From Sistotremastrum niveocremeum HHB9708 (taxonomy: Eukaryota > Basidiomycota > Agaricomycetes > Sistotremastrales > Sistotremastraceae), in assembly GCA_001630475.1 (NCBI GenBank), contig KV419409.1, positions 310,001 through 374,000 on the forward strand: DNA of 64,000 nucleotides, in the 5' to 3' direction. The notes under the pieces were generated by a model. The model searched no databases and was not told where the DNA came from. It saw only the letters and a list, made by a program, of their open reading frames with translations. Within the stretch, counting starts at the first letter, position 1. Each line of letters starts with the position of its first letter. Below are positions 1 to 60,471 of this stretch, one piece after another. Made by a program: the position numbers and the translations under genes.

Positions 1-31
1 CACACTCGTTTACTCGACGGAGGGCATGTAG

Positions 32-1203
32 GCATCAGAATTCAAAGAGGCTTTCTCGAACAACGTTCGGATTGATTTCGTTGGCGTCTTTGATACCGTT
101 GCTTCGGTCGGCATTATTCCGAAGCAGCTCCCCTTCACAGATGAAAATCGAGGTATCAGAGTGTTCAGACATGCCTTATCTCTGGATGAGCGTCGTATCC
201 GCTTCCAGCCTAACCACTTCCATAACCCACCTCGGAAGACCACCGACTCCCAAGCCAACGAATCGGGACCATCGCATAAGACAACGGGTACGCTTCATCA
301 ACGTGATGCTTTAACAGGAAAGAAGGTCGATCCTAAAGCCGAGAATACCGCATGGGATGAAACTGATCATAAAGAAGTCTGGTTCGCGGGTGGTCATGTG
401 AGCTCTTCGCAATGCAGAACTGTGATCGCTAAGATGGTTCATCGACGTAGAGTGACGTAGGAGGAGGGAATGTCAAAAATAAGGTCACCGTCAACTTGGC
501 CATGGTTCCGCTTCGCTGGTTGATACACGAAACGGTCGAGACACAAACAGGAATTCTGTTTGATCTAGCCCAGCTCTCTTTGATCGGTCTCGCCCCTCAG
601 AACATTCTTCCCAAATTGCAAGAGAATGACCCGCCTCTTGTTCCACTTGATGTGGCTCTTCCTAAAGCTCCGGAGCCCATAGAGGACGAGTTAGCGGACG
701 CTATAGAGCAAAGATTTGATCAGCTCCAGCGGAAATGGATTTGGTGGATTCTTGAACTAATTCCATCGAGAAATAGGGTGATGAACGAAAAGGGAGAGCT
801 TGTGGTTGAAAAACCGTACTGGTATGCTGTCCCTCTTTTGTGTAATCGAATTCAGGTGGTTGAATCTGATGACAGGCGATGCAACCTTGGAAAGGGACGT
901 CGTATTCCTATTTTCAAGGATCCTGATTGCCACGTTTACGTGCACAGCGCTGTCAAACACCGATACGAGAACTTCGAATATGTGGATGCATATAAGCAGG
1001 ACACAAACGGTCGAAAATGGGGCAAGTACCGACCGAAGGCCTATTGGGTTGATGACACAGGGAAAGAACATGCCCTTCGCTTTGAGACAGAGAATTTACC
1101 CCCGTCTTTCAAATGGTATGCGTTTGCTTTAATGGTGTTTATCCTAGATATGAGTGCTGATAATGGACGTGCAGGGCGGAATGATCATAGTGGTCAAACC
1201 TAG
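32..1203 (+). CDS. DUF2235 (Tle1-like) alpha/beta hydrolase, 3' part
   Basis: This is the C-terminal part of a fungal DUF2235 protein; the 5' end lies outside the window. The visible exons are 32-397 and 451-1203, split by a 53-nt intron (398-450). Splicing restores the family motif WFAGGHSDVGGGNVKN. Upstream are FDTVASVG and the RHALSLDERR..FQPN block typical of the family. The exon at 32 follows an in-frame stop and a TAG acceptor, so an earlier intron ends there. DUF2235 proteins are related to type VI lipase effectors of the Tle1 group. Fungal members are numerous, and their substrates are mostly unknown. The GHSRG-type nucleophile elbow would lie upstream and cannot be seen, so activity cannot be judged. 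The C-terminus ends in a hydrophilic tail of normal appearance. Confidence 0.85.
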
Positions 1204-3490: not shown

Positions 3491-4339
3491 TCAATCCCGT
3501 TTCACCCGACTGATCAGGTCGAACCGCCGCCCAGCCGCAATGAAGTTATTAGCAACTCCGAACACCCAATACAATATTACTATGAATAATAACCCTTGGG
3601 ATATAATCCACAGGGAAAGCTCCTGGGATACACTAGGTGATCGGACCACCGTATAAAACGCATGAATATAACCCAGGCCAATTCCGGCCCAGGACGCTGC
3701 ATCAATGAATTGGTATTGAGTTCTCCGAGTTGACGGCGATAGCGATGATGCTAGCTGAGGATATTGGTGGTGATAATGATGGATCAATGAAGAAATCCCT
3801 GTGAGGATCGGTCCGACAGTTAACGCGCATAGCAGTTCATTCTGCTCGAGGTATTGTAAAACCGGAGTGCCATGCGGTTGCAAAGTTAGCATTGGTAGAG
3901 GAATGAGCGTATGTAGTGACATCTATCGTTTTTATGAATTATGAAGGACGAAAAAAATCAAACTACTTACGGGTATGATTACATGTTGGTCAAAAGCGGA
4001 CACGGGACGACTGTTTGTCGATGTGAACACTGTTCCAGAGCCCCCGACCAATTTTGGATTTGTTCTTGGAAAATCATGTTCTAGAGAGTCATGGGATCCA
4101 GTCCGATAGACTGTTTTCGCTGTGAAGATAGCAGTCAGATCCGTTTAATTGTAGAGGAGATGAAATGTACAGGTGATATCTGCGACATCGTTCGATACAA
4201 GGAAAGAGCTATTAGGTTGCATTGAGTGGGACAAAGTATGTCCGTTCCTCTGAAGATAGGAGGGAGTCTCTGTCGCAGACAGCGACGATGAAGTTGGAGG
4301 GGGATTGCTTTCGCATACGAAGGTTTTGTTCTGGACCAT
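3491..4339 (-). CDS. Four-helix membrane family, member 1 (subgroup A)
   Basis: Exons 4171-4339, 3971-4119 and 3491-3922 encode 249 residues. A soluble Ser/Thr-rich N-terminus of about 105 residues contains the family motif SHDSL. It is followed by a phase-0 intron just before the first membrane helix (MSLHTLIPLPML). Three more hydrophobic segments follow: LLCALTVGPILTGISSLIHH, GIGLGYIHAFYTVV and WIISQGLLFIVILYWVFGV, then a short C-tail AAGRRFDLI. Helix 2 (GP[IL][LI]T) and helices 3-4 (GxGYIxAF, YWxxG) match the genes at 54453-55256 and 57836-58597, defining subgroup A. No enzyme motif or signal peptide is visible and the function is unknown. The start is the first ATG of the frame, and splice sites are consensus. 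Confidence 0.72.
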
Positions 4340-5536
4340 ATGTCAAGTCACTAAGCAACGTGAACAATCTGTAAGTTCTGATTTGAAGTCTGATGGTGAT
4401 GGAAGAGAGAGAGATGAGAAATGACCGTGATCCTGAACAGACGAACTTGAACTAGCTTTATCGCCCTTGCTCGACAATTGACGCCCAGTGTGTGCACTGT
4501 CCCACAGGCTGGTTTCCGCGTGCCATCAGTCATTACTTTCCGAATGGGACAAGACCCCCGAAACAATCTCAGGTTTCATCAGCTTTGAGGAATGCAGAAC
4601 GCTACGATGCACTCAGCAAAGTGGCATTACTGACTCTCTAGGATCTTTGCATTGCTTCCAAGCCTGCAGGGTCAAGAGTCGCCGATGGTATCAATCCTGA
4701 GATCTAGCACTCTGGTCCACTCTGGATGACCGAATCGACATCCAGGCTGTTCCTCGGACACAACCAGAAGGAAATGGGAGCTCAATTCCGATCTGGATCG
4801 GAAATCATAGCCTTACGAGTTCGCATCTGGCATAACTACCCCTGGATTTCATCATTCGACAGAGTTGGTCAACTGGAATGGTCAAGAATGGTTGGCGCAA
4901 CGCGGCGTTCGGAAGTTCCGGAAACCCGACAAGGGATCGGAGATAAACTGTGTAATGCCGTAACGTCATTATTCCAACACGCGAGTGGCGCCACGGTCCG
5001 TTGTCAGGAACTGCATAGCAAAGACGCCATGATGAATGCCTGTCGTAAGCGGCATAATGTGGAGCATGAAGAAAAGTGTACGACCATCGAATGGACTGTC
5101 CAATGGATCGCAAAGCGATGACTGAGTCACGAATGTAAGTGATCATTGGTCCAAATCACAACGCACCGTACGAGGAGATGCACCTGAATGAGCCACGGAA
5201 GGGCATCGCTTCAGAGCCTCTTGAAATTCGAAAATTTTCCCAGTCTGATGTCAATACTAATTTACTACTACCGTTATATTTTCCGAGTGCCATGACTGAA
5301 TAGTCCAGAAATTTGATTTCCAACGAACGTGTGGTAAGTTGCTAAGTAAGAGACGCGTTACGAGTATATAATTATCTAGAGGATCCGTTGTCAACGATGG
5401 CCAACAACAATCGCGGATGCAAACACATTTATGACATGCACGTTTATCATGTGGGCAATCATGATCGTAAAAAATTGGAACGCAAGGCAATGCCTCCGTC
5501 CTGATAACGGAGACAAGAGCATAACCTTAGGAAGGT
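4340..5536. other. Intergenic, 1.2 kb
   Basis: Short frames overlap on both strands, for example around 4726-5146, but none has recognisable domains, paralogues in the window or convincing splice context. I see no repeats or RNA genes. Confidence 0.4.
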
Positions 5537-6180
5537 TCAGTTCTCAGACGTCCGGTATTGACGCATCACAGAACGAATAGCTCCGAAAATCCAAAGCGCG
5601 CTCGACGCCAACACAATGGCGATGATAGAAATGGCAACTCTGTCGCAGGATAAAGCCAATATACGGAGTGACAAGCCAATTAGAGCTATCTCGACACCGG
5701 AACTCGCCAAAATAAATGGTAGAACGACTTTGAGCAAGAGGTATGGGATCGTCGTATGGTCTTGAGAGGCAGGCACAGACGGGGTTGGGACCGTCATAGC
5801 GTATAGGACCAATCCCACGGCTGAAATCATAGGACCGAGTGCCAGAAATTTGGTTGATCGATCGAGAACGATCATGTTGATGGCCGACGTGATAGGCCCT
5901 TGCATGCGGGGTGTGCTTAGAAAAATGGAGATGTGGACGAGGGTCTATAAGAGATATCCATTATGTGAATGAATAGCGTGGGCTCTATGATGCTGGAGAG
6001 ACTCACAAAGACCGGAACGTCATGCATCTTCAGGATGCAGTCGTGAGGAATGACTGGTCTTTTCATCGGATGACGAGGCCCTGGTGACTTGATGAGCATA
6101 CTGGGGCGATTATTCGATGCTAGTGAAGAGGTGCGCGTACCAAACGGGTACATTGCAAGATATGCAATTTGGATTGACAT
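5537..6180 (-). CDS. Four-helix membrane family, member 2 (subgroup B)
   Basis: Exons 6141-6180, 6007-6080 and 5537-5944 encode 173 residues. The short N-terminus carries the motif IPHDCILKMHDVPVF, then a phase-0 intron and TLVHISIF at the start of helix 1. Helix 2 is FLALGPMISAVGLVLYAM, helix 3 VVLPFILASSGVEIALIGLS and helix 4 about SIIAIVLASSALWIFGAI. It ends in a short basic tail. Exon boundaries, lengths and sequence parallel the neighbours at 7264-7897 and 9462-10291, so these three are recent tandem duplicates. No catalytic residues are recognisable. A small membrane-embedded accessory or sensor role is possible, but that is only inference. Confidence 0.75.
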
Positions 6181-7263
6181 AGGTGTCGTAGAGATGAATT
6201 TTTGTCGAGAACGTCTTAGGCTTCCAGTATGAGTCGACGGTGATGCGGGAGAGTTCGGCGGATGTGAGCCTTGCAATGTCCTGAGTTGTCAAGAAGTGCG
6301 GGCGGGATGGGACAGGAGGAAAGGTGGATGGTGTGTAGTCTGCATGAAGCTGCGATGTCTTCCTGTTTATAGACGAGCTGAGCAAGTGCTCGCGACGAAA
6401 TGTGACAGAGCGCTTGTTGTGGGATTGACTATTGAGGAACCGGAATCGGATGGAACGTCAAACAACATTCTAAAAAGAAATTCTGCAAGCCGGCGCCATC
6501 GGCATAGAAGGTACCAGTACTGTGCACCGTGCACAGCCTGAGCCAAGTGCAGGGACTGCCACACCTCAGGGAGTCTGTCGGACGGACTCGGCGAGGTTCA
6601 CAGAGACACTGAAAATGTCTGCATTGGTCGTCTGGTATGCTTCCTTCACCAGAGGAGTCCCTTGAATTATGACCATCCCTGAGATGATCATAGGAGACAA
6701 GATTCAGCCGATCGGCTAGCTGGTGACGGTTCTGAAGGGCCAACCCGGATATCGAAGTTAGTTCTCATGCTCATTTGCATGACGTCGACAATACCATGCT
6801 CAGTGCAGACTTGTTGAGAGATCTCGTACTTCTATTTATAGGCGGATGTCTTGCTGCATCATTCAAAAAAGTTCTTCTCCACCAAAAAAAGCTTGTGACT
6901 CAGATGAGGAATGACTGAGTACATTTGCGTGCTCGTACAAAGTGAACTTGAAAGAATATGCACCCAAGTCTTTTGACATTCGACTTTTTAACATCGGCGA
7001 AACTATAAGAGCAAGAGCACCACAGTGGAAGAAATCGGTCACTGAATTGGAGTACAGTATGTCAGGCAGACATTGGATCTTAGATCAGCAGAGTTGGAAA
7101 AGGAACATCGACGACAGTAATCAAAACAAATAAGGGGCGCGAAACAGAGGCAACAGGTAAAAGTCATAGCAAGTCGGGATCGAGAGCATGGAAATAAACG
7201 AGATTTTAATCGTGAGGAACAATCTTCATCCGACAAACCCGCGCGACGTCCATTCGAAGGCGT
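6181..7263. other. Intergenic, 1.1 kb
   Basis: This spacer upstream of member 2 holds only short overlapping frames on both strands (for example 6367-6743) without domains. I see no repeats. It presumably carries the promoter of the gene starting at 6180. Confidence 0.4.
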
Positions 7264-7897
7264 CTAGACCTGACGTACCAAAGAACGGACAGCGCCAATG
7301 ATCCAGAGCGCGGTGCCTGGCAACGAGATGACGAGGATTAAAACGGCAGCGGCGTTGTGAGACAGAGCCATGAAGCGAAGTGACAAGCCAATCAAAGCTA
7401 TCACAACGCCAGCGCTTGCCAGAATAAATGGCAGGACGATGTGAAGAAACAGCGTTGATGTTCTCGTGTAGTCGTTTGAGACAGTCCTGGACGGCGGTGG
7501 CAGGGTGAGAGCATATGCAGTCAAGCCCGCGGCCGAGGTCATTGGTCCGAGGAACAGGAATTTGGTTGACAGGTCGGGCCTAATTGCGTCGATCGTTGAC
7601 GCCGCGGTGGCTAGCATTCGCATATGAGGAGTGCTGAGGAGGATGAACAAGTGGACCAGTGTCTACGGCAAAGGGGGACTAGATCAACCAAACAGTTCAA
7701 CGCTACGACGGAGGAGTAACTCACAAGGACCAAAACGTCGTTCATCTTCAAGATGCAGTCGTGAGCAATGACTGACGGCTGGTGTACGGAGCGAGAAAGA
7801 CCTGGCAAGTAGTGTCAGCATGGACGATCATCTCGCAACATGAAACAGATATACCATATGGGTTCACGTGTCGGAGCGATAGAGTCTGCTGCGACAT
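7264..7897 (-). CDS. Four-helix membrane family, member 3 (subgroup B)
   Basis: Exons 7855-7897, 7725-7801 and 7264-7662 encode 172 residues. It is nearly collinear with member 2: MSQQTLSLRHVNPYG at the start, then AHDCILKMNDVLVL, the phase-0 intron, and TLVHLFILL opening helix 1. The later helices are FLFLGPMTSAAGLTAYALTL, IVLPFILASAGVVIALIGLS and VLILVISLPGTALWIIGAV. The introns (53, 62 nt) occupy the same places and phases as in member 2. The conserved parts are the HDCILKM box and helices 2-3, while the extramembrane loops differ, which suggests selection on the membrane core. Function unknown. Confidence 0.75.
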
Positions 7898-9461
7898 AAT
7901 TGAAGTTGGAGCAAATGCCCGTGGACGGTGAAGACGGATGCAAGAGTTCTACGGAACGTTGCAGCGTCGTCGCTGAAATGCTTTTGGTGGATGTGTAGAC
8001 CTGCTCTAGACCGACTGCAGGTCGCGAAGGTAGACTGGAGGATGTGGGGATCGGAGAAGCAGTAATGGCCCCGGACGACGATGGGCGAGGGCTTGTAGCA
8101 TGAAGGTCGGTCTATGGGGTTTTATTTGAAGTGGTGAAGAAACGCCAGTGAGGCCTAGTGAGGCATTGCCAAAATGAGATGTGGGTGTTTTTACGTAATC
8201 GAGCGGTGCATCCACCGGCGCAACGCCCGGCCCTAAACTTTTTTTTTTTGACTCGGACATTGAGCTCAGTTATGCAACTGTTCCAGTGATTCTTGCCTGA
8301 ACGAGTATACGTATATTGAGCTCTCGCTGCTGGCTTTATTCTTGCCAATCGTGATAGCAATACACACCGCTGCTACAAATCTGCCAGGTTTTCGTCTCCG
8401 CCGTGAATATACAATCAACAATTGCCTCGTGACGAGTCGAGTACCTCAGATTTCTCACCAATTCCCAGATCACATCATCGGGAGTATGATGTATATGGTG
8501 TTCTAGCGATATTCAAATCAATCACCGGTGCGGCCCTCTTCTTTTTCTTGGGATGAGGCATCAGGCTTGTCTGCTCCATTACGGCCCAGAACAACCGATC
8601 CGTATTTTTTTTGCTCTGTCGGACCGGCGTGCTTGCTTGATCCAACTTATCTTGGGTTAGATGGATGAAGGTAGGAACTGACTTGGCCTAGTCTGAATTC
8701 TGAACTCACTTCCTGAATGCGTTTCTTGGCGTTCCAGATCTCATTGTCCACGCAAAACATTCTAGCGGTACCCCGTCCTTCTCTGATAGTTGATCAAGTC
8801 TTTCGGATCAAGTACTAATTATGCCGGGCTTATTTTCTCTTTCTAGGCTTCTCGAGAACCTCGTCATCATCTGGAAGACCAGTGGAGGCGTAATTGATCT
8901 CTTAGCGTTTGATTCTTTCGGGTGCCGACTCTGAATTCGGCGCGCGCCTGCTCGCGCTGCCTCCTTTCTCATCGAGAGAGATATCGAAGGCGCAGTGGAG
9001 TGCGGCACGTCTGTCTCGGTATTAGACCCTGCTTCCCAAGTTGCCCAATCGGTATTTCCTATCAAAATTAAGTGGCTGGAAGACGGATCCGGCAACATAC
9101 ACGAAGACCCTGAGATCTTCACTCTGCAGATCTGGAACAATGAGGTCATGACATTAGATCCCGTTACTGGAAAACCCCTTCATGGATACGGAGTCTGCAG
9201 GGTCAATGCGCCGACGCATGCCGATCCCCTGGTGCCGTGAGAGGGTAAAGCCAACCAACGCTAAAAAAGGAGTGATACCAACGTCGTGAAATTGTACATA
9301 TTATGGAATACAGAGAGCAAATGACTACAAGATTATACTTCGAGATACCTAAACATGAGCAAGCCTGAGTCCTGTGCATCCCTAACAATGCTGGTCTACA
9401 CTATCCTCAACATCGAGGCCTTGCGTTCCTGCAGAACCGTCCGTGATCAAATACACCCCTC
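7898..9461. other. Intergenic, 1.6 kb, with a possible gene fragment
   Basis: Mostly featureless. On the plus strand, a frame opening after a stop near 8930 and ending at 9240 reads like real protein (EDGSGNIHEDPEIFTLQIW). It has no convincing start or exons and may be a remnant. A 10-base T run lies at about 8240. Confidence 0.3.
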
Positions 9462-10291
9462 TTACAAATATGGTTGTACTTTAGCCGCCGCCCCTAAAAT
9501 CCAGACTACGGAGCAGAGGGATGAGAGAACGAAGACAAAAGCGGCCGCGATATTATGAGACGAAACGAATAATCGGAGACTCAGGCCAATTGAGGCCACG
9601 ACGACACCTGAACTGATCAATACGAATGGTATGATGACACGCCAATACATATTGAAAGTTGTTGCACGTTGACCATTTGGCCAATGAAGCGGTCGACGGC
9701 CAAAATTGTGATAGCGAGGAGGTGTAGGAAGTGTGAAGGCGTAGGCTGCGAGACCGGCGACGGATATCAGAGGTCCGAGGGAGAGGAGGCAAGTTGAAAG
9801 CCTAAAAAGGAAGTCACTTTTGATGATCGAAGGGTACGGGGCCTTCCAGATGCAGACCATGAGGGCGAAGACCTGAGGGACATGAAGAGGTTGAGAACTT
9901 CGAACGTCACTAGAGGATATAGCGTACAATGACCGGGATATCATTGATCTTCACCAAGGAGTCATGGGGCATATTCGATTCCGAAGGTCGGAATAGGGGG
10001 ATGATTGGATCCGGGCCTTGGGTCGAACAGACGTTACTCAGTAAGTACGAGTTGGATGGGAATCATGAATAAATATCTGCTCACCATTGCTGTCGATGTT
10101 CCTCCACCCCAGATTCTGGAGCTCAAGATACTCTGAGAAGATCAACTCAATACGGCGAGACCAAACGGGAGGTGTGACCCACGAGGTGAAGGGGTTCTGC
10201 TTATTCCATCTAACGATCCCGGAATAGCTTGGAGGTGATGATGAGCCGGTTCACGGCGAGGTTCCGCAGTCTGCCTGAGGGGACCCGCCAT
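9462..10291 (-). CDS. Four-helix membrane family, member 4 (subgroup B)
   Basis: Likely exons are 10162-10291, 9928-10016 and 9462-9872, giving 209 residues. The N-terminus is longer than in members 2 and 3 but ends in the equivalent LPFG junction, then carries the box MPHDSLVKINDIPVI. A phase-0 intron precedes VFALMVCI in helix 1. The other helices are LLSLGPLISVAGLAAYAFTL, IIPFVLISSGVVVASIGLS and FVFVLSSLCSVVWILGAA. The first intron (145 nt) is longer than usual here and contains another good donor, so an extra small exon or another splice form is possible. The loop after helix 2 is longer than in its paralogues. Confidence 0.68.
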
Positions 10292-15690: not shown

Positions 15691-17960
15691 ATGTCCGATC
15701 TTCCAAATAATCTCCACCTTGCGTTATGGGTCTCGACTGCACTCATATTTGCGGTGCTTTTGATCCCGAGGATCAGTTATCGTAAGAAAGAATCGGAACA
15801 TCTTCCATACCCACCGGGACCACAAGGTCTTCCGATAATCGGGAGCATTCTACAAATGCCCCAGAAAGATCAATGGCACACTTTCGCAGAATGGGCTCGT
15901 AAATACGGTGAGTCAACAGTGGTGCTCGAGTTTGAATGATTGCCAAACTTATGGGCAGGTAACATCATACATCTGACTCTCTTGGATCGGCATGTCGTAA
16001 TCCTCACTTCGTATGAAGACGCGGACCGCCTTCTCAATGCTCGGGGTGCTATATATTCGAGTCGACCAAGGCTGACCCTTTTCCGCCAACAGTGAGCCCT
16101 ACGTCTGATTACCAGAGGACCCAATTCAATTTTGCCAGTGCAGGTTGGGACAAGTTACTCGGAATTCTGCCTTACGGAGAGTCGTTGCACACTCAGCGTC
16201 GCATGTTGAACGGCTTCTTTAACCCATCTGCGTCGCGGAAGTATCATCCATTGTTGGAGCACCATTCACGACTGCTAGCGCTTCAATTGTCCGAGGATTC
16301 ATCCAAACTCGATATACTCACCCGATTGTGTGTCATCGCTCAAATCCCACCAGCTTATTCTAATCACCATCACGACAGGCACGTGTCTGCAGTCATCTTA
16401 AGAATCACTTACGGGCACAAAGGTTCGCTAATCGTTGAGATATATGCTAAACCATTTACCTTGGGATAGCCGAAAGTGAGGACGACGAATGGATACACTC
16501 GTCGGAGGCGGCCATGAAGAGCTTTGATGCGCTGGGAGTTCCTGGGTCGCATGCGATAGACATCTTCCCCGCTCGTGAGTCATGTATTCACTGTCTGGGG
16601 TCCAAGCCATCGACGACGCGGAATTATGAGCAGTGGGTAGATTGCCATACTGGATCTGGGGGACCCGCTTTATTCAAGCACTCGAGGGCCTGCGCAAAGG
16701 TGCCTTCGATCTATCGATCAAGCCCTTCGCAACAGTGAAGGACCAATCAGTCCGTTCGAATTCAATTACTTCGTCTCAAGATTGAGACCAGACTGCAGAA
16801 ATCGGGAAATGCCGAACCTTCTATCGCAGCGAGGCTCATCGAAGAAAACGCTTCAAACTCTGGAACATGCTACGACGAACGAGACATGTCCGGCGCTTGT
16901 GGAAGCATATACGCAGGTACATCAGTCCCGTCCTTTCTGGTGTGTCTGCTTACGCGTTTGGTATGCAGCTGGCGTTGACGCTGTACGACCCTGTTTTGCT
17001 TTCGCCAAACTGCATCAATTGAATTACGCTGGCAGAATGACCTGTTGATTCATTCGTTTATCCTGGCTATGGCAGTGTACCCCGAGGTCCAGCGGAAAGC
17101 GCAGGCGGAACTGGATCATTATCTGCGAAATGAAAGGCTTCCCAATGTAGGGGATCGCAACTCATTGCCGTATCTTACTGCTGTCGCAAAAGAAGTTCTG
17201 AGGTACCGTTTCACCTTCTTCACGCAAAGCACGTCTGAGCGCCTAAGTAGATACCGGCCAATTGCGCCACTAGGTGAATTCGACGTGAGAGAAACATGGA
17301 GCGTTTGCGGTACTTACTACGATTTTGCTTGTCTAGGATTCCCTCATGCTACAGAAGTCGACGATGAATATGAAAAGATGCTGATTCCCGCAGGATCCAT
17401 GATCATCACTGATATGTGCTCAGAGCATTTCGATCTATCTTACTTTACGGCCCTGTTCATGCTCGTCTATTAGGACCATGTGTCATGATCCCCATGACTT
17501 TCCAGATCCGTTTCTTTTCAATCCAGATCGATTCTTGTATTATGAGGGAGGAGCGCCCAGCCTTCGCAAAGACGTTCGGGAACCTGAAGATATAGTATTC
17601 GGCTTTGGACGAAGGTTGGTAATAATCTGGCATTACGCCAAACCATGGGCGCATTACTTACTACTACCTTCAGAATCTGTATCGGAAGACACATTGCGAT
17701 GGCTCAATTATGGATCATCATTACCACTTTCCTGGCTACTTTTGAGATTGGCTTACCCCATGACGAAGCTGGAAAAGAAATTCGGCCCACGAAGGAACAT
17801 TTCGATCAGATTGAAAGGTACGGCTTGGAGTCGACTTTCTCCTCTTTTCACCTCGCTCAACCTGCACTGTAGGCATCCGAAACCATTTCCGTTTCAATTC
17901 GTGCCTCGATCCAAGAGTGTTATTCATGCGTTGCGAGATGCGGTCTCCAGCGCCGAGTAG
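15691..17960 (+). CDS. Cytochrome P450, tandem copy 1
   Basis: Fourteen exons assemble without a stop into 525 residues: 15691-15907, 15959-16091, 16139-16327, 16379-16422, 16470-16574, 16634-16749, 16799-16916, 16969-16982, 17036-17202, 17251-17273, 17337-17415, 17474-17614, 17674-17817 and 17873-17960. An N-terminal membrane anchor is followed by the hinge PYPPGPQGLPIIGS. The K-helix ExxR is KEVLR, then NPDRF and the heme loop FGFGRRICIGRH. It is a microsomal class II monooxygenase of unknown substrate. The I-helix reads AAGVDA, so the usual proton-relay Thr is Ala. The donor of intron 11 has shifted, removing one Trp present in the sister gene but keeping frame. Exon 8 has 14 nt. The downstream gene has the same exon plan. 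Confidence 0.85.
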
Positions 17961-18537
17961 GGAAAATAATTCTTGTGTCAATAGTCAACGCGCGCTCAGT
18001 CCGATAATTTCTCTAACACGTATGCACGAGTTGGAAGGATGAATAGCTGTATATTCATCGGGAATAATGCTAGTAACATTGGTACGATCGACGCCAGCAG
18101 GGCGCTGTGACATAAGCACAACGCGTTTCGCCTCGACTGGCTGCCACCTCGAACCTTCACGTTCACTGCTCGGCCTTTGGCTCATATAGTGGAAAGATTG
18201 TGTGCTGAGGCGGTCAATGGTACTGAGTGTACCTTGTCGCGGCCGTTGTTGGAGCCTGCCCGAGACGCTGGGATGCTGAGCGAAACTTTGGCTTCTTGGC
18301 TTCCCTTCTCGTGAGAGGCTACTATGGTCAGTCTCACGGCGGTTCATTCAGTTGATACTACGAGATATAACTAACATGTGCCTCCCAGGTGGTGACGTTG
18401 TTCCTGTACATTTATATATCGAGGGACATGGGATCATGTGGTCCCACCACTTGGACATCATCCTCGTTATCGATAATTAGGCAAATACCAGGAATCTGGT
18501 CATTACGAGGCCTTCGTCCAAGTTTCCTACCTCGAAA
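17961..18537. other. Spacer between tandem P450 genes
   Basis: 577 bp holding the presumed promoter of the second P450. A minus-strand open frame of 120 codons (17985-18347) has no recognisable content and is probably chance. Confidence 0.4.
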
Positions 18538-20821
18538 ATGACCATCGGATCAGAAGATCTTTATCCGGCATTGCTGCTCGTGTGTCTGGCTTTCTCAACA
18601 TTCGTGGTGTTGCGCAAAACTCGGTCGTTTCGATACTGGACGGGCCATGAATCACTTCCCTTTCCACCTGGCCCGAAGGGTCTCCCAGTCCTGGGCAATA
18701 TCTTTCAAATGCCTCAAAAAGACCAGTGGCACAGGTTTGGCGAATGGGCTAAACAGTATGGTTGGTCGAATAGTCCGCCTTTGGAATTCGTGCCATTAAT
18801 CACTGAATTCCTAGGCAACATCATCTACTTCTCATTATTGGGGAAGCACGTCGTTGTCCTCACCTCTTACGACGAAGCTTCCGCCCTTCTAAATGCTCGA
18901 GGCTCCATCTATTCCGACCGACCCAAATTACCTCTTATCCACGATCAGTACGTCGATCTTCACCTGTCAGATCTTTCACGAGTAATTTCTATCATCAGTG
19001 CAGGCTGGGATAATGTCTTATCTATCATTTCATGGGGAGAGTCCGTACATATGCAACGCCGAATGCTGAACGGATTTTTCAACCCTTCAGCCTCAAGAAA
19101 ATACCATTCATTCCTTGAGCAGCATTCTCGCACTCTGGCACTTCAAGTGGTGGAAAATCCGCTGAATTTTGATGCTCTTAATCGAATGTTAGTATGTTTA
19201 GTTTTCTTCGGGCGTGTAGCTAATTCGACTTTCAGGCACATGGCCGCCGTGATAATGTGGATCACATATGGCCACCAAGGTATACTTTCCATCATTTTGA
19301 TCGACGTCCTGAACCCATCTTGTCATAGTTACCGAGGCTGATGACGACTGGGTTATTGACGCCAAGACAGCTATCAATAGTTTCGATGCTCTTGGAGTCC
19401 CCGGCTCTCATCTGATCGACATCTTTCCTATATGTGAGCATTCTTGAACAGTCCTATCCACACCTCTGACACAGCTCCGATCAGTAGGACGACTGCCATA
19501 CTGGGTCTGGGGGAAGAAATTTGCGGTCGGCTTGAAGGGTACCCAAAAAGGCGCCTATGACATGATCGATAAGCCGTATACCCAAGTTAAACAGCAAGTT
19601 GTGAGCTCAAGAATAGATAGCCACGTGTGCCTATGCTGATATCCACGAAGAAAACAGGAACCGCGGAAGCATCCATCACGGCTAAACTACTTGAAGACAA
19701 TCTCGCTCTTGACGGAACTATCAATAATGAACGAGAAATCTCTGGAGCTGCAGGGATCATCTACGCAGGTGAGTTTACTACCCATGGTCAATTAGCGCGT
19801 CACTGACTTTCACTCAAGCTGGGGCTGATACGGTATTTTTCGTTTTCCCAGACCTTCACTCCTAATTACTGAACGACATCATGTGGGCAGACGAACGTGG
19901 CAGTAAACTCTTTCATCGTTGCCATGGCGATGTATCCGGAAGTCCAGATGAAAGCACGCAAGGAGCTCGACGACTTCTTACGTGGCGAAAGGCTGCCGAA
20001 TATAGCTGATATGCCTTTCTTGCCATATTTGTCGGCAGTCATGAAAGAGTCATTAAGGTAAATGATACGCTTAAATTTCGTCAGCACTGTGGACTCATTT
20101 TTGCTGTCCGCCAGAATTAGACTTGTAGCTCCACTCGGTTCTTACCTTTCCTTGAGCATCGTCGAGAGAAAGCTCATGATATGTGCGCAGGATTACCGCA
20201 TGCCACCATCGCCGATGATGTATATCAAGGAATGTTTATCCCGAAAGGAGCGATGGTCCTAACTGACATGTGGTGCGAATATTTTAGTCTGAAAATACTC
20301 TGAACCTCAACTAATGCGAACGCATAGGACTATGTGCCACGACCCCCATGACTATCCAAACCCTCACCAGTTTGATCCCGAGCGCTTTCTTGTGCGCGGT
20401 GGAGGTATGGCCAAACTTCGTTCCGACGTGCGTGATCCAGAAGATATAATATTCGGCTTCGGAAGAAGGTACTCATTCTTCGTCATAGTATGGCCTCATA
20501 CTGACCATCTGATGTTCAGAGTATGTGTTGGGAGGCATGTTGCCATAGCTCAAATCTGGATCATCATGGCGACCATTTTGTCCACTTTCGAGATCAGTCT
20601 GCCTCGCGACGAAGCTGGGAAGGAGGTTCGTCCAAGCGAAGAGCACCTCAATCAAAATGCAAGGTACGTAAATAGACACTTATGCCATGCTGCTACATCC
20701 TAGCGGCACGTTCAGGAACCCGAAACCGTTCCCCGCTGTCTTTGTCCTCCGGTCTGATAAGGTGGTCCGATTCTTGAAGGAGTCCATGCTAGAAGCTGAA
20801 GAATGGAAGTTGGAATATTAA
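18538..20821 (+). CDS. Cytochrome P450, tandem copy 2
   Basis: Fourteen exons, matching copy 1 in number, phase and mostly length, give 534 residues: 18538-18760, 18815-18947, 18999-19187, 19236-19279, 19329-19433, 19485-19600, 19651-19768, 19819-19832, 19891-20057, 20115-20137, 20191-20272, 20328-20468, 20520-20663 and 20716-20821. Landmarks are an N-terminal anchor, PFPPGPKGLPVLGN, the I-helix AAGADTT (normal acid-Thr pair), KESLR, DPERF and FGFGRRVCVGRH. All key residues of a working P450 are present. Substrate unknown. Introns 1-3 (54, 51, 48 nt) are all multiples of three with no in-frame stop, so the first 268 codons of genomic sequence stay open even unspliced. Confidence 0.88.
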
Positions 20822-20889: not shown

Positions 20890-22698
20890 TTAGGCAATAT
20901 ATACAGTTGAGCTATCGAGGAGCCATTCACTGCTCAAACTACACTCGAGCTCGCGAATATTTTGGGCTGGACAATTTGCATTATGAATGGTCCACAAACA
21001 GCCTCTCATCCAACGATTCATCAACACATGTTGAGCCTTCCGCGCGTCCCCGTCGAAATGCTTCTGAATATCCGCCACCAGCTTGATCCCATTCCTCGCT
21101 GCTATTAAATCAAGTCTATCTCGCCAAGTAGCTGTTTCATCAGCTGCAGCGGAGGCTTCTTTGAAAGCTCTGCATTGATATCGGATCTGAAATCGGAACA
21201 TCATCGACTTCAGTCTCAGTCGTTCCTGAGTATCGAGTCCCTGGAGCAGGTTCGTCTCAAGATCTGTATCGAGAGCGACGATCCCGTCCAGACATGGGAG
21301 AGCTCGGGACCACGGGATGCGCAGGTACACCACATTTTTTGAGCTTGGCGGCTGAGCTGCCAACCACCGAAGATGGGGAAGGACGAGCGAAGAAAATGAA
21401 GGTCGCTCATGGAGATAATCTTGGGCCCATGAACGGATTGGGGATTGCGGCGTTGCAGTCGCAGCTGCGGTTGCAGGAGGTGCAGTGGACGCTGGATTCT
21501 GGCATGTCGACAAAGCTAGAGACGAGGCAGGACACAGCATGAACACCACAATGGGATTTCCGAGAGAAGCCATGGTTGGCATGGCAGAAAAGACGCTTTT
21601 GAAATCATCTCGCTCTTCGTCGATAGCTTTCGGCATCGAAGGATAAGCCCAGGATACTATGGCTTCTGCGAGGCCGGGGCTCCAACGATTGTTCGCCTTA
21701 TAGAACGCTCCGACGAACTCGGCAGTTTCGCCACCTAGACCGGCCGCTTTCAAAGACGAAATGACCTCGAGGTAGGTATGAGTTTGGGCGGTTGCGAAGC
21801 CCAGATCGAATGAGTTGAACATTGCCGCTCGAGCTCGCTCGGATGGGATGTAATATTTCGTCCCTCTGGCCCGTGCATTGATGAGCAGCCTGTTCGAGTC
21901 GCTGGTGTCTCTGGAGTTGAAATAGTACGTCCGGCCAAAGTTCATGATATCCCTCGTCGAGACTTCTGCGATGTCCGAAGCTCCTGAGAAGACGCCATCG
22001 ACACCCCTTCCTCGCCAGCTTATCCGGAATAATGACATGAGGGTTAGGAAGGATTTCTGATCCATGGATGCCAGGGGACGTGTGGCACCCTCGGGGATAT
22101 AGTCGTAAGAGGACCTGCGTTCGGTGATTGTGAATGACACGTCGGTCAGAGTCGTGTATTGGAGTAAGTTGAGCCAAGAGCAGCGGGCTTCTGGTATAGA
22201 GCCAGTAGAGTGTAAGAACCAGGGCTTGTCCTTAGCATTGTAATACTCTCCTATTTGACTGGCAAGGGAGTATGGGATGAAACAATATTGGTGATTGTCG
22301 TCTGTGGCATCGATGATTAAATTTAAGTTCGGCGGATCGTATCCAGGAAGCGTCGAGGATGGAAGCCCATCTGGCTGGAATTTCTCTGACCGAGACTGGT
22401 CAGATGTTGGTACCAAGCCATCCGAGTATGTGTCTTCTTTCAGAACGGTGAACTTTGCTGTATAAGGAGTAGGTCGAGGTCGTAAGGTTATCCGCGGTGC
22501 AGAGAACGTGATCTCGAAGCGCACTTCACTCCATATCCACTTTCTCTTCGTATTTCTCGCCCAAGCTCCTATAGTCTTCCTTGAACATCGCCTATAGTCA
22601 TATGCAGTGGCTGCATATTGCTGAGTGACTTGAAGTATGGCGACGATGAAGGCCACAAAAGAAACAGCAAGCGCTGCTGTCCCGACCTGGTCAACCAT
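20890..22698 (-). CDS. Modin-like membrane protein, copy 1
   Basis: One intronless frame of 602 residues from the ATG at 22698. The open frame continues 39 codons upstream, but both paralogues start at this Met. One N-terminal membrane helix (about residues 6-25, AALAVSFVAFIVAILQV) is followed by QQYAATAYDYRRCS, then W-W-EVRFEI, a long cytosolic body with SYDYIPEGATRPLASMDQ and FGRTY, and a C-terminus with MNRWMRG, WTIHN and ELECSLSSEWL. The layout recalls fungal proteins annotated as modin, a name tied to modifiers of vegetative incompatibility. That label is from memory and the biochemical role is unknown. It is divergent with the copy at 23101. Its 3' end lies 68 bp from the P450 stop, tail to tail. 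Confidence 0.8.
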   Translation of the reverse strand: MVDQVGTAALAVSFVAFIVAILQVTQQYAATAYDYRRCSRKTIGAWARNTKRKWIWSEVRFEITFSAPRITLRPRPTPYTAKFTVLKEDTYSDGLVPTSDQSRSEKFQPDGLPSSTLPGYDPPNLNLIIDATDDNHQYCFIPYSLASQIGEYYNAKDKPWFLHSTGSIPEARCSWLNLLQYTTLTDVSFTITERRSSYDYIPEGATRPLASMDQKSFLTLMSLFRISWRGRGVDGVFSGASDIAEVSTRDIMNFGRTYYFNSRDTSDSNRLLINARARGTKYYIPSERARAAMFNSFDLGFATAQTHTYLEVISSLKAAGLGGETAEFVGAFYKANNRWSPGLAEAIVSWAYPSMPKAIDEERDDFKSVFSAMPTMASLGNPIVVFMLCPASSLALSTCQNPASTAPPATAAATATPQSPIRSWAQDYLHERPSFSSLVLPHLRWLAAQPPSSKNVVYLRIPWSRALPCLDGIVALDTDLETNLLQGLDTQERLRLKSMMFRFQIRYQCRAFKEASAAADETATWRDRLDLIAARNGIKLVADIQKHFDGDARKAQHVLMNRWMRGCLWTIHNANCPAQNIRELECSLSSEWLLDSSTVYIA

Positions 22699-23100
22699 CT
22701 CAAAAATTTGGCACGTTTTATGATTTGTCCGATTCGTGAATACCTTGGAAAAGGTGTGATGGAATAGATGGTAAGCAGCTCTTGAGCCAATGCATTCCAG
22801 TCTACATGCTTTCAAATTGACGCGTTGACGCTTTGGACTATTGAAACTCCGATTCAGGCAATTCTGACCCGCTATCAGATTCAGAACACTGCCTGGAATC
22901 GCTACACTGCTTCATTAATATTGGGCATCCCGCAGCAACGCTGTAACTCGCATTAGAATGACTTGCCTTCGGTTGTCAAATAGGTGTTCTCTTCCTTTTA
23001 CCACGTCTTCGCCTCGAGTCCTGCGCACCACAAAGCTCAGCTCGCTGGCATATTTGAACATATCTGGCCCTTGGATCCCCTCATATCTGGACAACAGAAG
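22699..23100. promoter_or_regulatory. Shared promoter of divergent modin-like pair
   Basis: About 400 bp between the two head-to-head starts. A CCAAT pentamer lies at 22787-22791 and an inverted one (ATTGG) at 22920-22924. I see no strong TATA box. The two genes probably share control elements; this is inference from arrangement alone. Confidence 0.45.
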
Positions 23101-51140: not shown

Positions 51141-52453
51141 TGTTGAGTGGAATTGGGACGAGAAAGTGTGATAATTTGCTCGTCGGATTTTATTCGAAAT
51201 CCAAGAGTCTGAAGCTCAAATGAACGGCGAGAACTGAAGCAGGAACGCGTTGTGACGGCTGTGACCAATGCCCTTCTCCCGCTCATCTGTTTTTCTCTTC
51301 GTTGAACTCTGGGAACGGCTGTGACCATCGAGCTCATTCGCGGTTCTGGGCAGACCTCGGGCGAAATAATATGAGAATATTCATTCCCATGTGTCAAGAC
51401 TTCCAACGGCTACATAGCCCCCCATGTCTTGTTGCATAGAAGTTGGTGGTCTCGAACCGGACACGCTCGCGAGAAATGTGGTTCAAAATATCTCTTCGAC
51501 ACGGCCCCACAGACTTATGAAGATGCAGATAGTGTACGTGAGTAACAGGCGATGTGGCATTACCAAATTCCCACTGACTAAGTATATCGCTATCTAGCCA
51601 CTAGTAGCCAGTCAAACATGGCTGTTGACGATCACTACTTCTCGAGGGTTTTTTTAGAAGAGTATGGGATCAGGATGAGCTCCTCTAAGACGTACGTCTG
51701 TATTGTCTACGATATACATGTCGATTGGACTTATGTTTCATGATGTAGATCTCGCCCAATTTCTGGAACGAAATTAAATTGACGTATATGTATCGGAAAA
51801 TTGAACACAGGACGTTCAAACCCGGATATTTCGTTTTGTGAAGAGCAACGATATAACATCGTAGAACCGAATCTTGGTGGTCCTTGCATTGGCATCAGTC
51901 AAAATGACAACAATTACCGAACGGAGATCTCTCCTACTTTTTCCTCCGCAACCTGGTCGACGAGCTCCAACGGTCTGCGCCCGGGTTCCATCGCCAGGGT
52001 ATGTGTATACACGCCAATCGCGCTCACAAACTTACATCACGAAGCAGCGCAAATTTTACTTCCGGAGCCGTCCTTCCTAAAATGGAAATATATCGAGACC
52101 CTTGTCGCCCTAAAATCGCCGATGTAGTACTCGTCTTAAGTCGTTTTGTTTGGAAAATCCTGGCTATGGTGTCTTCCTAACCTGCCTCGATGCAATCTCT
52201 CATTGCGGCGTATCACGGCGCAAAATATCGCGCGAAACACGCCCAGACCAGGAGGAAGGTTGAGCATATCCGATTGCCGAACGGAATACCCTTAGACCCA
52301 AAGCCTCCTATCAACCGCATCAGAAACGCCCGGGGCCAAGTCATGGTGTTTCGCTTGTTATATGAATCGTGAGCCTCCCTCGATACCTTTTCCCTCCTAC
52401 TCCCATTAACTCCCTCACTCCACGCCAGCGTTCTACACGGCAAGCTCACTGTC
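51141..52453. other. Intergenic, divergent, 1.3 kb
   Basis: It lies between the divergent DEUBAD and modin-like genes and must hold both promoters. A tRNA-like TTCGA context near 51450 was checked and does not fold into a full cloverleaf by eye. No gene is supported. Confidence 0.4.
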
Positions 52454-54452: not shown

Positions 54453-55256
54453 TTAAGCTTCAGAAGACGGGCCAACATTGTCGTAGACAGTCATGCATCC
54501 ATGTACCCAATACAATGATATAACGCTCAAAAGTATTATGCCAACCACACACACCTCCGGCTGTCCGACTGCCAATGCGACTCCACACATGCCTGCGAAT
54601 GCGATAAGGAACCCAAATCCTTTTATTGCCCAGGTGAGCGTGACGAGGAACCTCAAGCTACTTGGATCCACGACTCCGTCGTCTTCTGCTTCTCCAAGAG
54701 CTCTAATGAAGTATTCGTGGCTTGCGGCTCCTACCCCAGTGAGTATCGGTCCTGCACTCGTCACTTGAATAGAAAGATGTTCCAATCCCTCATTGAGCAG
54801 TTTATTCGGAGACTGTTCGAGAATGCCCAGAGGAAGCACAATCAGCAGATGACAAGCCACCTGTTGTTGTGGATACGATCAAGGTGATCTCTGGTCTTTT
54901 TAGTCAAACTTACTGCTACGAAGATTGCCAACGTTGATTCAGATATAGAGCCTCGTCGCCGAAAGCGACGTCTGCCCAAAGAAGGAGAATTTATTTCAAC
55001 TCGATCACGATTTTCGTGGACGAGTCTTTCTAATGCGAGATTCGTCGTCGCGATTGAACGTCGCTCCCATTTTTCGTCTTCGCCTATCGTTATTTATATG
55101 AGCTCTCGTTCTGTTTGGGAAAATCTCTGCCTAACTCTGGTCTGAACCTGCATCTTCATCGTGCACCGTCCGATATCCAAACGCTTCTGTGTGTCTGATC
55201 AAATAACCTCCATGGGTCCGCAGTGAGTTGTTTGAGTCGAGGACAACTTGGGGCAT
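54453..55256 (-). CDS. Four-helix membrane family, member 5 (subgroup A)
   Basis: Exons 55148-55256, 54914-55083 and 54453-54860 encode 228 residues. The hydrophilic, Arg-rich N-terminus includes VHDEDAG and GRRRFRRRGS. A phase-0 intron falls inside the first hydrophobic stretch, between STLAIFVA and VACHLLIVLPLG, keeping the family His. Helix 2 is QVTSAGPILTGVGAASHEYF, followed by AIKGFGFLIAFAGMCGVAL and VVGIILLSVISLYWVHG. The GPILTG, GFG..IAF and YWVHG words match members 1 and 7. The N-terminal ATG frame is supported by phase agreement across the 64-nt first intron; another frame overlaps it but ends in a stop. Function unknown. Confidence 0.7.
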
Positions 55257-56137: not shown

Positions 56138-57430
56138 CTATCTCGATTTCTTGAGCCAGTCATCGATCTCTTTGGCAGCACTTTGCCATTTGTTGTGAAT
56201 TCCGAGCGCACAACAAAGCATATAGAGAATGCAGAATAAGAGCAACCAACCGAGCAACACTACAGACCATAGGTTCCAATAGAATAGCATGGCGCCAGAT
56301 AAAGCAAGAAGGTGTCCGAAGTATTGAAGAGTGCAAGGGATCGTAGCAATGACCTGGTAAAGGACCTTGCGTCCTGTCGGGATACGATGCTTATCCGTGA
56401 AGCCTAGGTATCTTGGCTCGATGCCACAAACTTCCATCATGAATAGGGCGAGGGCGGTGAGCATTAAGCCGATGATCGTCAATGCATTAGCGTGCTCATG
56501 AGGTGGGGCGGCCTTTGGATCGTTCACAGCGGCAAAATGGGGTGGGTATCGCGCGAATGCGTGAATGATGAACTGAGATCCAAGGTAAGCCCGTGCGAGT
56601 GGAATGCTGTTAAAGACTTACTGATGTGATGTAACTCATGTACTTAGAATTATGGTTGTTGTTCGATTTCGCTGCACGGTTTGCCGCAGCCGACTTATGC
56701 TGCATTTTAGTGAGAAAAGCTCTGATTTCCTTCGCATCCGGAATCCCTAGATCTGAGAGTGCAGAGAAGGAATCTGTTCTAGGGCATAAGGAAATATTGG
56801 GGAATGTGCTAAGACAAAACTCACCAATGCTGTGGGTACTTTCAGCATCTGAGCCGTCGGGTTCATTGAGAGGTAAAAGAGAGGGTGCTGGTGAAGGGGG
56901 GACCTTGAGATCTGAAGTGATGCGTCAGTCATCGTCGTACAGTCGACGTAGCCAACACTTACCAACAAGATGGTAATCGATGACTTCATGAAAGTATTTG
57001 ATCTTCTCGTTTCCGAATTTCACTGCACTCGGCGGCACTGAGAATCTGATTAGTCGGGAGCACAACACCAGCGTATATGACCTCGCCACTATAGCATTAC
57101 TTACCGATTGTGACTGCGATCTGGTCATCTCCCGACCCAAACGAAATGTTGGGTGCGTTCTGAGGGCTAGTCTCGCCATATGCGGTTGAAGAGTCCAGCA
57201 ATGGGTCGCGAGACTGAGTGCTTCCCGCGTCCTGCGACAAAGTAGCGTCAGACACCAGAAAGCATGCTCATAAGGGTATTTTCGGCTAGATTTACCTCGA
57301 CAGAGATAGCGGGATCATCTCGGGTATCAAGGTCTATCGCATGCTGTGTGATGCCCTCATGCTGGGGTGCAGGACCGTCTGCAGCGCTGGCAGTAGAGCT
57401 CTTTTGGGTCTGTGTTCTCTTCTTTCCCAT
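56138..57430 (-). CDS. Four-helix membrane family, member 6 (divergent, long N-terminus)
   Basis: Six exons (57296-57430, 57105-57231, 56963-57037, 56825-56911, 56622-56752, 56138-56572) encode 329 residues. A basic start MGKKRTQTQKSS leads to an acidic, disordered N-terminus and a moderately ordered block (PPSAVKFGNEKIKYFHEVID). A Lys/Asn-rich run then leads to MSYITS, a phase-0 intron and FIIHAFARY, the family position for the intron and the following His. Helices follow: ANALTIIGLMLTALALFMME, TLQYFGHLLALSGAMLFYW and VVLLGWLLLFCILYMLCCAL. Membership rests on topology, the intron and the genomic array more than on residue identity. The N-terminal half has no counterpart in the other members. 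Confidence 0.72.
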
Positions 57431-57835: not shown

Positions 57836-58597
57836 CTAGTCTGTCCCTCCACAGATGTCATCAAATCTTTGGCCTTCGAAGCTGTAAGTCCCTGTAATGC
57901 CCATCATCCAATAAAACATGAGGACTGGAAGAAGGGTATAGGCAATGGCAGATAGCGCCCAGTGAGCGGAGAAAAAGGAGGACTGTGCCACAGCGGCGAA
58001 GGCATAGATATAGCCAAACCCCATCAGTGCTCGAGAGAGAGTTGTCGATAATTGATGTCGCGTCCGAGCGTCCGTTTGAGGTCTACCGGTACCGCCTTTC
58101 ATGGATGTCGTACACAGAAAATGCATGAAAGACGCGGCGGCAGTGATCAAAGGACCTATCAAGACAGAGCAGGGAAATAGTCGGCTCTCTGAGAAGAACG
58201 ATGGATTTGAGTGTTGTGGATTTAATGCCCATAGAGGTGCAAGGATGAGAATGTGGCACATTGCCTAGAAAATCTCGATCAGGAAACATTCGGACGGCCG
58301 TGTTAGACATACGGGCTGAAAGAAGTGCTCTCGAAACGCAGATGTAGGCTCCCCGACGCAGTCATGGAGTTCATCCAGATCAACATCTACGTTGCGTGTG
58401 TCTGTTTCCGTGCGTTAGCTCTGGAATCTCTCAGTAGCGGATAACTAACCTCTTTGGACCTTTTGGTTCCGGGGACGAAGTCTTTTGCTCGACTTACTTT
58501 CATGCATTGTTCTGACAGGATTTGACGGAGATGATAAAGGCGTCCACGTTTTGCCAGGTGCAATCTCGGCATCACGATAATGTTTAGAAGACGTCAT
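57836..58597 (-). CDS. Four-helix membrane family, member 7 (subgroup A)
   Basis: Exons 58450-58597, 58313-58401 and 57836-58264 encode 221 residues. A Met 19 codons upstream (58654) is an alternative start in the same frame. The N-terminus is basic (KSSKRLRPRNQKVQR) and carries DLDELHDCVGEP. A phase-0 intron precedes AMCHILILAPLWAL. The next segments are PCSVLIGPLITAAASFMHFL, RALMGFGYIYAFAAVAQ and IAYTLLPVLMFYWMMGITG, ending EGQRFDDI. This parallels member 1 closely (GPILTGISSLIHHY, GLGYIHAFYTVV, YWVFGV, AGRRFDLI), although the two lie 54 kb apart in different arrays. Function unknown. Confidence 0.72.
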
Positions 58598-59440: not shown

Positions 59441-60471
59441 CTAGTGATCCAACCCAACGGCGATGACATGATAATCATCTCTCAGTAGCTGCGTCATCTT
59501 TCTCGCCGCACCAATGACCTTGACAACGAGGCATATGGTCAACATTGCGCCCAACAGAGACGTCGAGGTGGAATATTCGGGGCCCATCTTCAGCATCACC
59601 AGGCCTCTGGCACTTAGTACGAGCCCGAAAACAAATAATAGGGTCGGACAAGTGACGTGGGCGTGAAACCCGACCTGGTTGAACTGGGGTGCGGCCACAG
59701 GCCTTCGGGTTCTTCGGATTGTGAGGGCTCTGGGGGCATCTCTGTGGACGGTAGGCGAGTGTGGGATAGGAGAGAGTTGAAGCGCTCGAATGAAAGCACC
59801 GGCGGTGGAGAACATAAGCCCTGCAATCATGGAGCTCTGGGAATGGTTCAACTCCGAAACATAACGACCGCGCGTAGTGGCTAGGACTGCAGAGCATATC
59901 ATGAGATGAATGAGCGTCTGAGGAACGATGAGCCTCTATCACATCGAATCCAGACCTCGAAAGCACGAACGCAGAGAAATAGTTCCAATAATACGCAGTC
60001 AACTGAACTGTCGTGGATGGCACCTTCGAGAAACAGTAAAGACAGGGTGCTATAAGCAGGCGTGGGCTGCGCTAGGAAGGCGAACAGGAGAACGCGGCGT
60101 AGTATTTCTTGCCAGATGGTTGCTGAAGAGGGCGGGATGCGTCAAACTGAATGATGATATGCATGAAAGCTCACGAGTGGGTGGTCTATGGGCTCCCGCA
60201 CCTGGAGTATTTTCAGTAGGGCCTTTCAATGTGTTCAGCATCGGTAATATAGGCAGAGTGGGGCTCAACCTACTAGTGTCTGGGGCATCAGCTCCTGCGT
60301 GACTCGGCGGTGAGACCATGGTACTTGAACGGCGGAGTTCAGATACGGCGGCCTCGGGGGTTGATGAACTGTTACGACCTGCGAGTTGAAGTCAAAGTGA
60401 GCATACTGCCGACCACAGCGAATTCATAATTACCTGATGTAGGAGTACTCTCCGTAGACATATCGGACATT
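59441..60471 (-). CDS. Four-helix membrane family, member 8 (subgroup B-like)
   Basis: Exons 60435-60471, 60175-60378, 59971-60122 and 59441-59917 encode 289 residues. The Ser/Thr/Pro-rich N-terminus (MSDMSTESTPTSG, SSSTPEAAVSELRR) is the longest of the subgroup B-like members. A hydrophobic stretch and the box AIHDSSVDC come before a phase-0 intron, then TLIHLMICSAVLA, matching TLVHISIF and TLVHLFIL of members 2 and 3. Later helices are SMIAGLMFSTAGAFIRAL, TCPTLLFVFGLVLSARGLVM and STSLLGAMLTICLVVKVIGA. Two donors (GTTCGT and GTGCTT) are possible at the end of exon 3; the first keeps both the HD box and the helix-1 frame. Function unknown. Confidence 0.66.

What the first reader, a model, noticed from the sequence alone, without database searches (positions are those of the whole stretch)
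3491..10291. First array of an undescribed four-helix membrane protein family
Four genes in a row on one strand (3491-4339, 5537-6180, 7264-7897, 9462-10291) encode proteins of 172-249 residues with four predicted helices and no enzyme motif. Three are close tandem duplicates and one belongs to a second subgroup found again 50 kb away. I know of no characterised family with this signature. Their repeated duplication and variable soluble parts suggest an adaptive role, such as sensing or incompatibility, but that is inference.
Basis: partly seen in the sequence, partly recalled or inferred. Interest (0 to 1): 0.8.

Follow-up and report, generated by a model that had tools for sequence, protein, structure and literature searches.

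The report
Fungal four-helix membrane protein family
One stretch of a fungal chromosome carries at least fifteen related genes for small four-helix membrane proteins that match no family in the libraries searched; they look real and old, but what they do is unknown.

Summary
Three of the four gene models reproduce exactly (249, 193, 172 aa). The genome holds at least 16 members, 15 within 216 kb of one contig. Subgroups A and B are one family: profile-profile probability 94-97%, shuffled controls at most 1.7%. An intron ends three codons before the helix-1 His in 13 of 13 members that have it (base rate 2.1%). AlphaFold gives four helices, the first at low confidence. g2-g3 dN/dS is 0.28. New here: three arrays each have A upstream of B, and two arrays share lineages older than the arrays. 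No significant match in Pfam, NCBIfam, PADLOC or PDB. NLR and Tle1-like lipase genes are over-represented nearby, but that is a single locus. My best guess, inferred only: a mixed A/B membrane assembly with variable cytosolic heads serving recognition or stress responses.

The parts
3491..4339 (-). g1, subgroup B member, three exons, 249 aa
   Evidence: spliced model; B relatives
5537..6180 (-). g2, subgroup A member, two exons, 193 aa
   Evidence: spliced model; 58% core identity to g3
7264..7897 (-). g3, subgroup A member, three exons, 172 aa
   Evidence: spliced model; AlphaFold model of the membrane exon
9462..10291 (-). g4, subgroup A member; membrane exon 9465-9872 clear, 5' exons up to 10291 not resolved here
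54456..54860 (-). B54, membrane exon of a subgroup B (B') member; 5' exons not resolved
   Evidence: pairs with B411 in the tree 86/94
56141..56572 (-). C56, membrane exon of a subgroup C member; 5' exons not resolved
   Evidence: weakest link to A and B by profile-profile (12.7% and 2.0%)
57839..58264 (-). B57, membrane exon of a subgroup B member; 5' exons not resolved
   Evidence: AlphaFold model
59444..59917 (-). A59, membrane exon of a subgroup A member; no convincing splice donor found
   Evidence: found by the four-member A profile, E 8.7e-8; single-protein search found only itself

Best explanation
Shown by sequence: one family of small four-helix membrane proteins, at least 15 genes in 216 kb and one distant copy elsewhere; lineages A, B, B' and C that are older than the arrays; A upstream of B on the same strand in three of three arrays; purifying selection for the one pair where it can be measured. 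Suggested by charge: N and C ends and the 2-3 loop in the cytosol, the 1-2 and 3-4 loops outside. Inferred: A and B products form a mixed oligomer in the membrane, packed through the conserved glycines of helices 2-4; variable cytosolic N-terminal heads couple it to partners; the set serves recognition of, or response to, non-self or stress in a region also rich in NLR and Tle1-like lipase genes. I hold the family itself at about 0.95; the confidence given is for the inferred mechanism.
For: Fifteen C16 members and one on C17. A against B profile probability 93.7% and 96.6%, 29 column shuffles each at most 0.9% and 1.73%, reversed 0.37% and 0.25%. CAG or TAG three codons before the His in 13 of 13 against 55 of 2573 His codons. 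Four helices in two models. Loop charges summed over 15 members: 1-2 loop -7, 2-3 loop +25, 3-4 loop -1, C-tail +18; Gly 15/15, 15/15 and 14/15 in helices 2, 3, 4. g2-g3 dN/dS 0.28. A on one side of a branch 91/94, B54+B411 86/94, C56+C17 copy+B412 82/78. A-before-B order in three arrays, 1/80 by label permutation. Tle1-like loci 4 of 14 and NLR matches 3 of 33 in 0.73% of the genome.
Against: No partner, ligand, localisation or expression is known. The association with NLR and lipase genes is one region; both families cluster in general, and contigs C18 and C58 hold both without a detected member of this family. Merging neighbouring lipase loci weakens p from 3e-6 to 0.003. P450, UstYa, TauD and transporter genes lie in the region too. 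Array genes are tandem copies, so shared order is partly expected; A59-A407 and B57-B409 are not resolved as pairs in the tree. B244 and A459 stand alone, without a detected partner. Only 2 of 13 inner branches have full support.
Confidence: 0.3

Rival explanations
1. Small transport, sorting or cell-surface proteins of ordinary metabolism or development, expanded by tandem duplication; the NLR and lipase neighbours are chance company in a region prone to duplication.
For: Several unrelated families are duplicated in the same stretch: P450, Tle1-like lipases, and a family with 3 of its 5 loci in the window. UstYa, TauD, sugar transporter and Na/H exchanger genes lie in the region.
Against: No match to any transporter or surface family. 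Nothing here tests it directly.
Confidence: 0.35
2. A divergent branch of a known four-helix superfamily such as Orai channels, claudin-like proteins or tetraspanins, beyond the reach of these searches.
For: Orai appears among the weak fold matches of both models (E 2.1, probability 0.63, TM 0.52 for B; E 2.0, probability 0.16, TM 0.29 for A). Claudin-family chains lead the B fold list (E 1.2) and Claudin-3 the second PDB profile search (E 0.02).
Against: None is significant: 0 fold matches at E 0.001 or better for either model. The 1-2 loop has 12-20 residues in the aligned cores, short for claudins, and no member shows the claudin loop motif with its two Cys (read by eye; motif recalled; A407 has a WPLW without the Cys pair).
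Confidence: 0.15
3. Decaying or neutral copies without a selected function.
For: High divergence: 9-37% core identity for every pair but g2-g3 (58%). No convincing splice donor in my scan for A59, B411, B413 and A459.
Against: Fifteen of 15 membrane exons are open frames; g2-g3 dN/dS 0.28; splice acceptor kept in 13 of 13.
Confidence: 0.07

Closest known systems
SNB1 (Snowball) family of Agaricomycetes (PMC10949477, passages read)
   Same: A fungus-specific membrane protein family of unknown mechanism.
   Different: Seven predicted helices and few copies per genome in that paper's passages; here four helices and at least 15 clustered copies. No sequence comparison was made.
Orai (CRAC) channels
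   Same: Four helices; weak fold similarity in both models.
   Different: No significant fold or sequence match.
Claudin superfamily
   Same: Four helices of similar size; weak matches.
   Different: Short first loop and no claudin loop motif (motif recalled).
Fungal NLR-linked cell-death systems (HeLo-type effectors, gasdermins, patatin-like lipases; PMC10197012, passages read)
   Same: NLR-type and lipase genes lie in the same 254 kb; the paper offers defence-island-like regions in fungi as a hypothesis.
   Different: The membrane executors named there are other proteins; none of the 14 members scanned matches a Pfam model of them.

Membership tests
Orai channels | sequence or fold match to Orai | tested here: not met
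   fold E 2.1 and 2.0, no sequence-profile match up to E 10
Orai channels | acidic pore residue in helix 1 (recalled) | tested here: inconclusive
   no Asp or Glu in the 12 aligned residues of helix 1 in 15 members (0 in 177 residues), but helix 1 may begin in the previous exon, which was not checked
Claudin superfamily | long first extracellular loop with a Trp/Leu-Trp motif and two Cys (recalled) | tested here: not met
   aligned 1-2 loops of 12-20 residues; motif not seen by eye in the 15 cores
SLATT_fungal (PF18142) | match over Pfam's curated cut-off | tested here: not met
   E 1.1 in 1 of 11 members scanned
SNB1 family | seven transmembrane helices | tested here: not met
   four helices in two models; seven per PMC10949477 passages
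fungal incompatibility (het) genes | allelic polymorphism and cell death on fusion of unlike strains | not testable with these tools
   one assembly only; no second strain or phenotype data
NLR-controlled membrane effectors | genes consistently adjacent to an NLR gene, or fused to NLR-type domains | tested here: inconclusive
   three NLR-like frames in the 254 kb (C16 238, 351, 390 kb), none within an array; a single locus

The most novel reading that the evidence does not exclude
The cassettes encode paired A/B membrane executors or channels of a fungal defence island: NLR-type sensors and Tle1-like lipases encoded around them act on, or through, a mixed four-helix pore whose cytosolic heads diversify for recognition, a membrane effector class outside the HeLo-type and gasdermin classes.
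Probability: 0.08. Interest if true: 0.85.

Novelty: new variant of a known kind. Interest (0 to 1): 0.45.

Why it matters
Tandemly expanded, lineage-bound membrane protein families are common in fungi and mostly unnamed (general knowledge). This one has a clear signature, a shared splice position and a repeated A-B order, so it can be defined, counted across species and tested. If it is tied to the neighbouring NLR and lipase genes it would point to a new membrane arm of fungal self/non-self responses.

Tried and rejected
Rejected: chance open frames. Membership in a family of the libraries searched. Viral or prokaryotic relatives: searched only with B57 and g3, 2 of 15 members, in IMG/VR and GTDB genomes; pattern matches (3, 18, 97 and 44 stretches) were found but none encoded a relative. 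Orai, claudin and SLATT leads are not significant. Literature: nine searches, of which I saw listings and abstract starts; no listed paper describes such a family, but most listed papers are off topic and only open-licence papers are held, so this says little.

Limits and own errors. My first alignments cut g4 inside its intron, so the 'invariant His' they show is wrong: g4 has Leu there. A407 probably keeps an unspliced intron in my core, seen as a 41-residue helix-3 segment. Of the 13 His positions, 11 were aligned in uncut frames before I looked at splice sites; those of A407 and B412 were picked by eye with the AG in view, as were the exon edges of g4, B413 and the C17 copy, which have no such His and are not counted. 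The donor scan assumed phase 0 and did not try other phases. The signature counts use cores cut at the shared splice site, which helps the His column line up. B413 and the C17 copy were not scanned with Pfam.
Full report
What is there. The window is positions 310001-374000 of contig C16 (717,637 bases) in a 34.7-Mb, 111-contig assembly. Its gene content (fungal cellulose-binding domain, NLR-type NTPases, P450s, and UstYa nearby) and short introns are fungal. Genes 1-3 of the finding reproduce exactly when spliced (249, 193 and 172 aa). Gene 4's membrane exon is clear; its 5' end is not resolved.

Extent. Single-protein searches of the whole genome and profile searches of 254 kb around the window give 15 members on C16, at 243.9, 313.5 (g1), 315.5 (g2), 317.3 (g3), 319.5 (g4), 364.5 (B54), 366.1 (C56), 367.8 (B57), 369.4 (A59), 407.7, 409.5, 411.5, 412.1, 413.8 and 459.4 kb. 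One further copy, related to C56, lies on C17 at 134.5 kb (28-29% identity, E 6e-8 and 1e-8). Fifteen of the 16 found lie in 0.62% of the genome. These are lower bounds by the tool's own statement.

One family. A and B cores share 9-21% identity, but profile-profile comparison gives 93.7% (96.6% with two more B members), against at most 0.9% and 1.73% in 29 column shuffles each and 0.37% and 0.25% for the reversed profile. On reversed open frames the best profile E-value is 0.43. With all 16 cores in one profile the 15 C16 members score E 1e-22 or better and the next frame 0.41, but that profile contains them. Subgroup C is the weakest link: profile-profile 12.7% with A and 2.0% with B; it is kept for the B-profile hit, the His and the splice position.

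A shared splice position. In the 13 C16 members with a His at the start of helix 1, a CAG or TAG lies nine bases before the His codon in 13 of 13. In the region 55 of 2573 His codons in long frames have this (2.1%; the count includes the family). Eleven of the 13 His were aligned in uncut frames beforehand; two were picked by eye with the AG in view. Good donors (5 or 6 of 6 consensus bases) occur for g1, g2, g3, B54, C56, B57, B244 and the 407.7-kb member, fair ones (4 of 6) for g4 and the 409.5- and 412.1-kb members; for A59 and the 411.5-, 413.8- and 459.4-kb members the best is 3 of 6 (which assumed phase 0). Exon ends resemble each other within subgroups: HDCILKMHDVPVF, HDCILKMNDVLVL, HDSLVKINDIPVI in three A members; a final Pro in 4 of 6 B members (-IIP, -FQP, -ITP, -YTP; B54 and the 411.5-kb member lack it).

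Structure. AlphaFold models of the membrane exons of B57 (pLDDT 79.0, pTM 0.67) and g3 (76.6, 0.62), each from eight window sequences, show four helices; helices 2-4 are confident, helix 1 is not (block pLDDT about 51-62) and is cut short by the exon edge. Over 15 aligned cores: His 13, helix-2 Gly 15 and Pro 12, helix-3 Gly 15, helix-4 Trp 12 and Gly 14. Net charges, with loop edges carried over from g3, are -7 (1-2 loop), +25 (2-3 loop), -1 (3-4 loop) and +18 (C-tail), which favours N and C ends inside.

Selection and history. For g2-g3, dN 0.33, dS 1.18, ratio 0.28, third positions differing most; every B pair tried is saturated and the other A pairs have dS 1.8-2.2. In the tree 2 of 13 inner branches have full support and 5 are open. 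A is one side of a branch (91/94), B54 pairs with the 411.5-kb member (86/94), and the 412.1-kb member falls with C56 and the C17 copy (82/78). So array 2 (A59, B57, C56, B54) and array 3 (407.7 A, 409.5 B, 411.5 B', 412.1 C-like, 413.8 B) have corresponding contents, although A59-A407 and B57-B409 are not resolved as pairs. In three of three arrays A precedes B on the array's strand (1/80 by label permutation; tandem copies are not independent); 12 of 13 array genes lie on their array's strand, the 412.1-kb member being reversed. I read this as an old A-B-(B'-C) cassette copied along the chromosome. The members at 243.9 (B) and 459.4 kb (A) stand alone.

Surroundings. Tle1-like lipase domains: 37 exon matches in 14 loci genome-wide, 4 of them in this 254 kb (p 3e-6; 0.003 if neighbours are merged). 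NLR-like matches: 3 of 33 (p 0.002). These p-values ignore the general clustering of both families, and contigs C18 and C58 hold both without a detected member of this family. A third, unnamed family has 3 of its 5 loci in the window. P450 genes and, outside the window, UstYa, TauD, sugar transporter and Na/H exchanger genes are there too (which shows 25 of 31 families).

What it may do. Shown: a real, multi-copy family, constrained in the one pair that can be measured. Predicted: four helices, ends inside. Inferred: a mixed A/B membrane assembly with cytosolic heads. The recognition role rests on expansion, divergence and neighbourhood only; I put it slightly below an ordinary transport or surface role.

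Known or new. Best matches: Pfam E 0.06 in 14 of 15 C16 members; NCBIfam E 0.049 and PADLOC none in the 8 window members (prokaryotic libraries, so of little weight); PDB profile E 0.07 (WzzE) and 0.02 (Claudin-3); PDB fold E 1.2 and 2.0, with Orai in both lists. The nearest printed relative in kind that I saw is SNB1 (PMC10949477, passages), with seven helices. That fungi may have defence-island-like regions is a hypothesis in PMC10197012 (passages); PMC9815663 (passages) on fungal NLR effectors holds neither 'transmembrane' nor 'lipase'.

Noticed in passing
window 20893-22911 (-), 22984-24894 (+), 52373-54217 (+): Three long frames (55-64% identical) of one family with an N-terminal hydrophobic stretch and no Pfam match in the three; 3 of 5 loci in the genome lie in this window.
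   Followed up: partly
window 40849-42156 (-): NLR-type NTPase frame (nSTAND1 E 1.5e-9) of 436 aa, shorter than most of its relatives in the genome, whose frames are mostly 700-1000 aa; possibly truncated or continued in another exon.
   Followed up: no
window 3-457 (+), gene starting before the window at C16 309.4 kb: Tle1-like lipase domain gene, one of four such loci in C16 247-310 kb and 14 in the genome.
   Followed up: partly
window 16017-20700 (+): Four frames with cytochrome P450 matches, read by me as neighbouring P450 genes.
   Followed up: no
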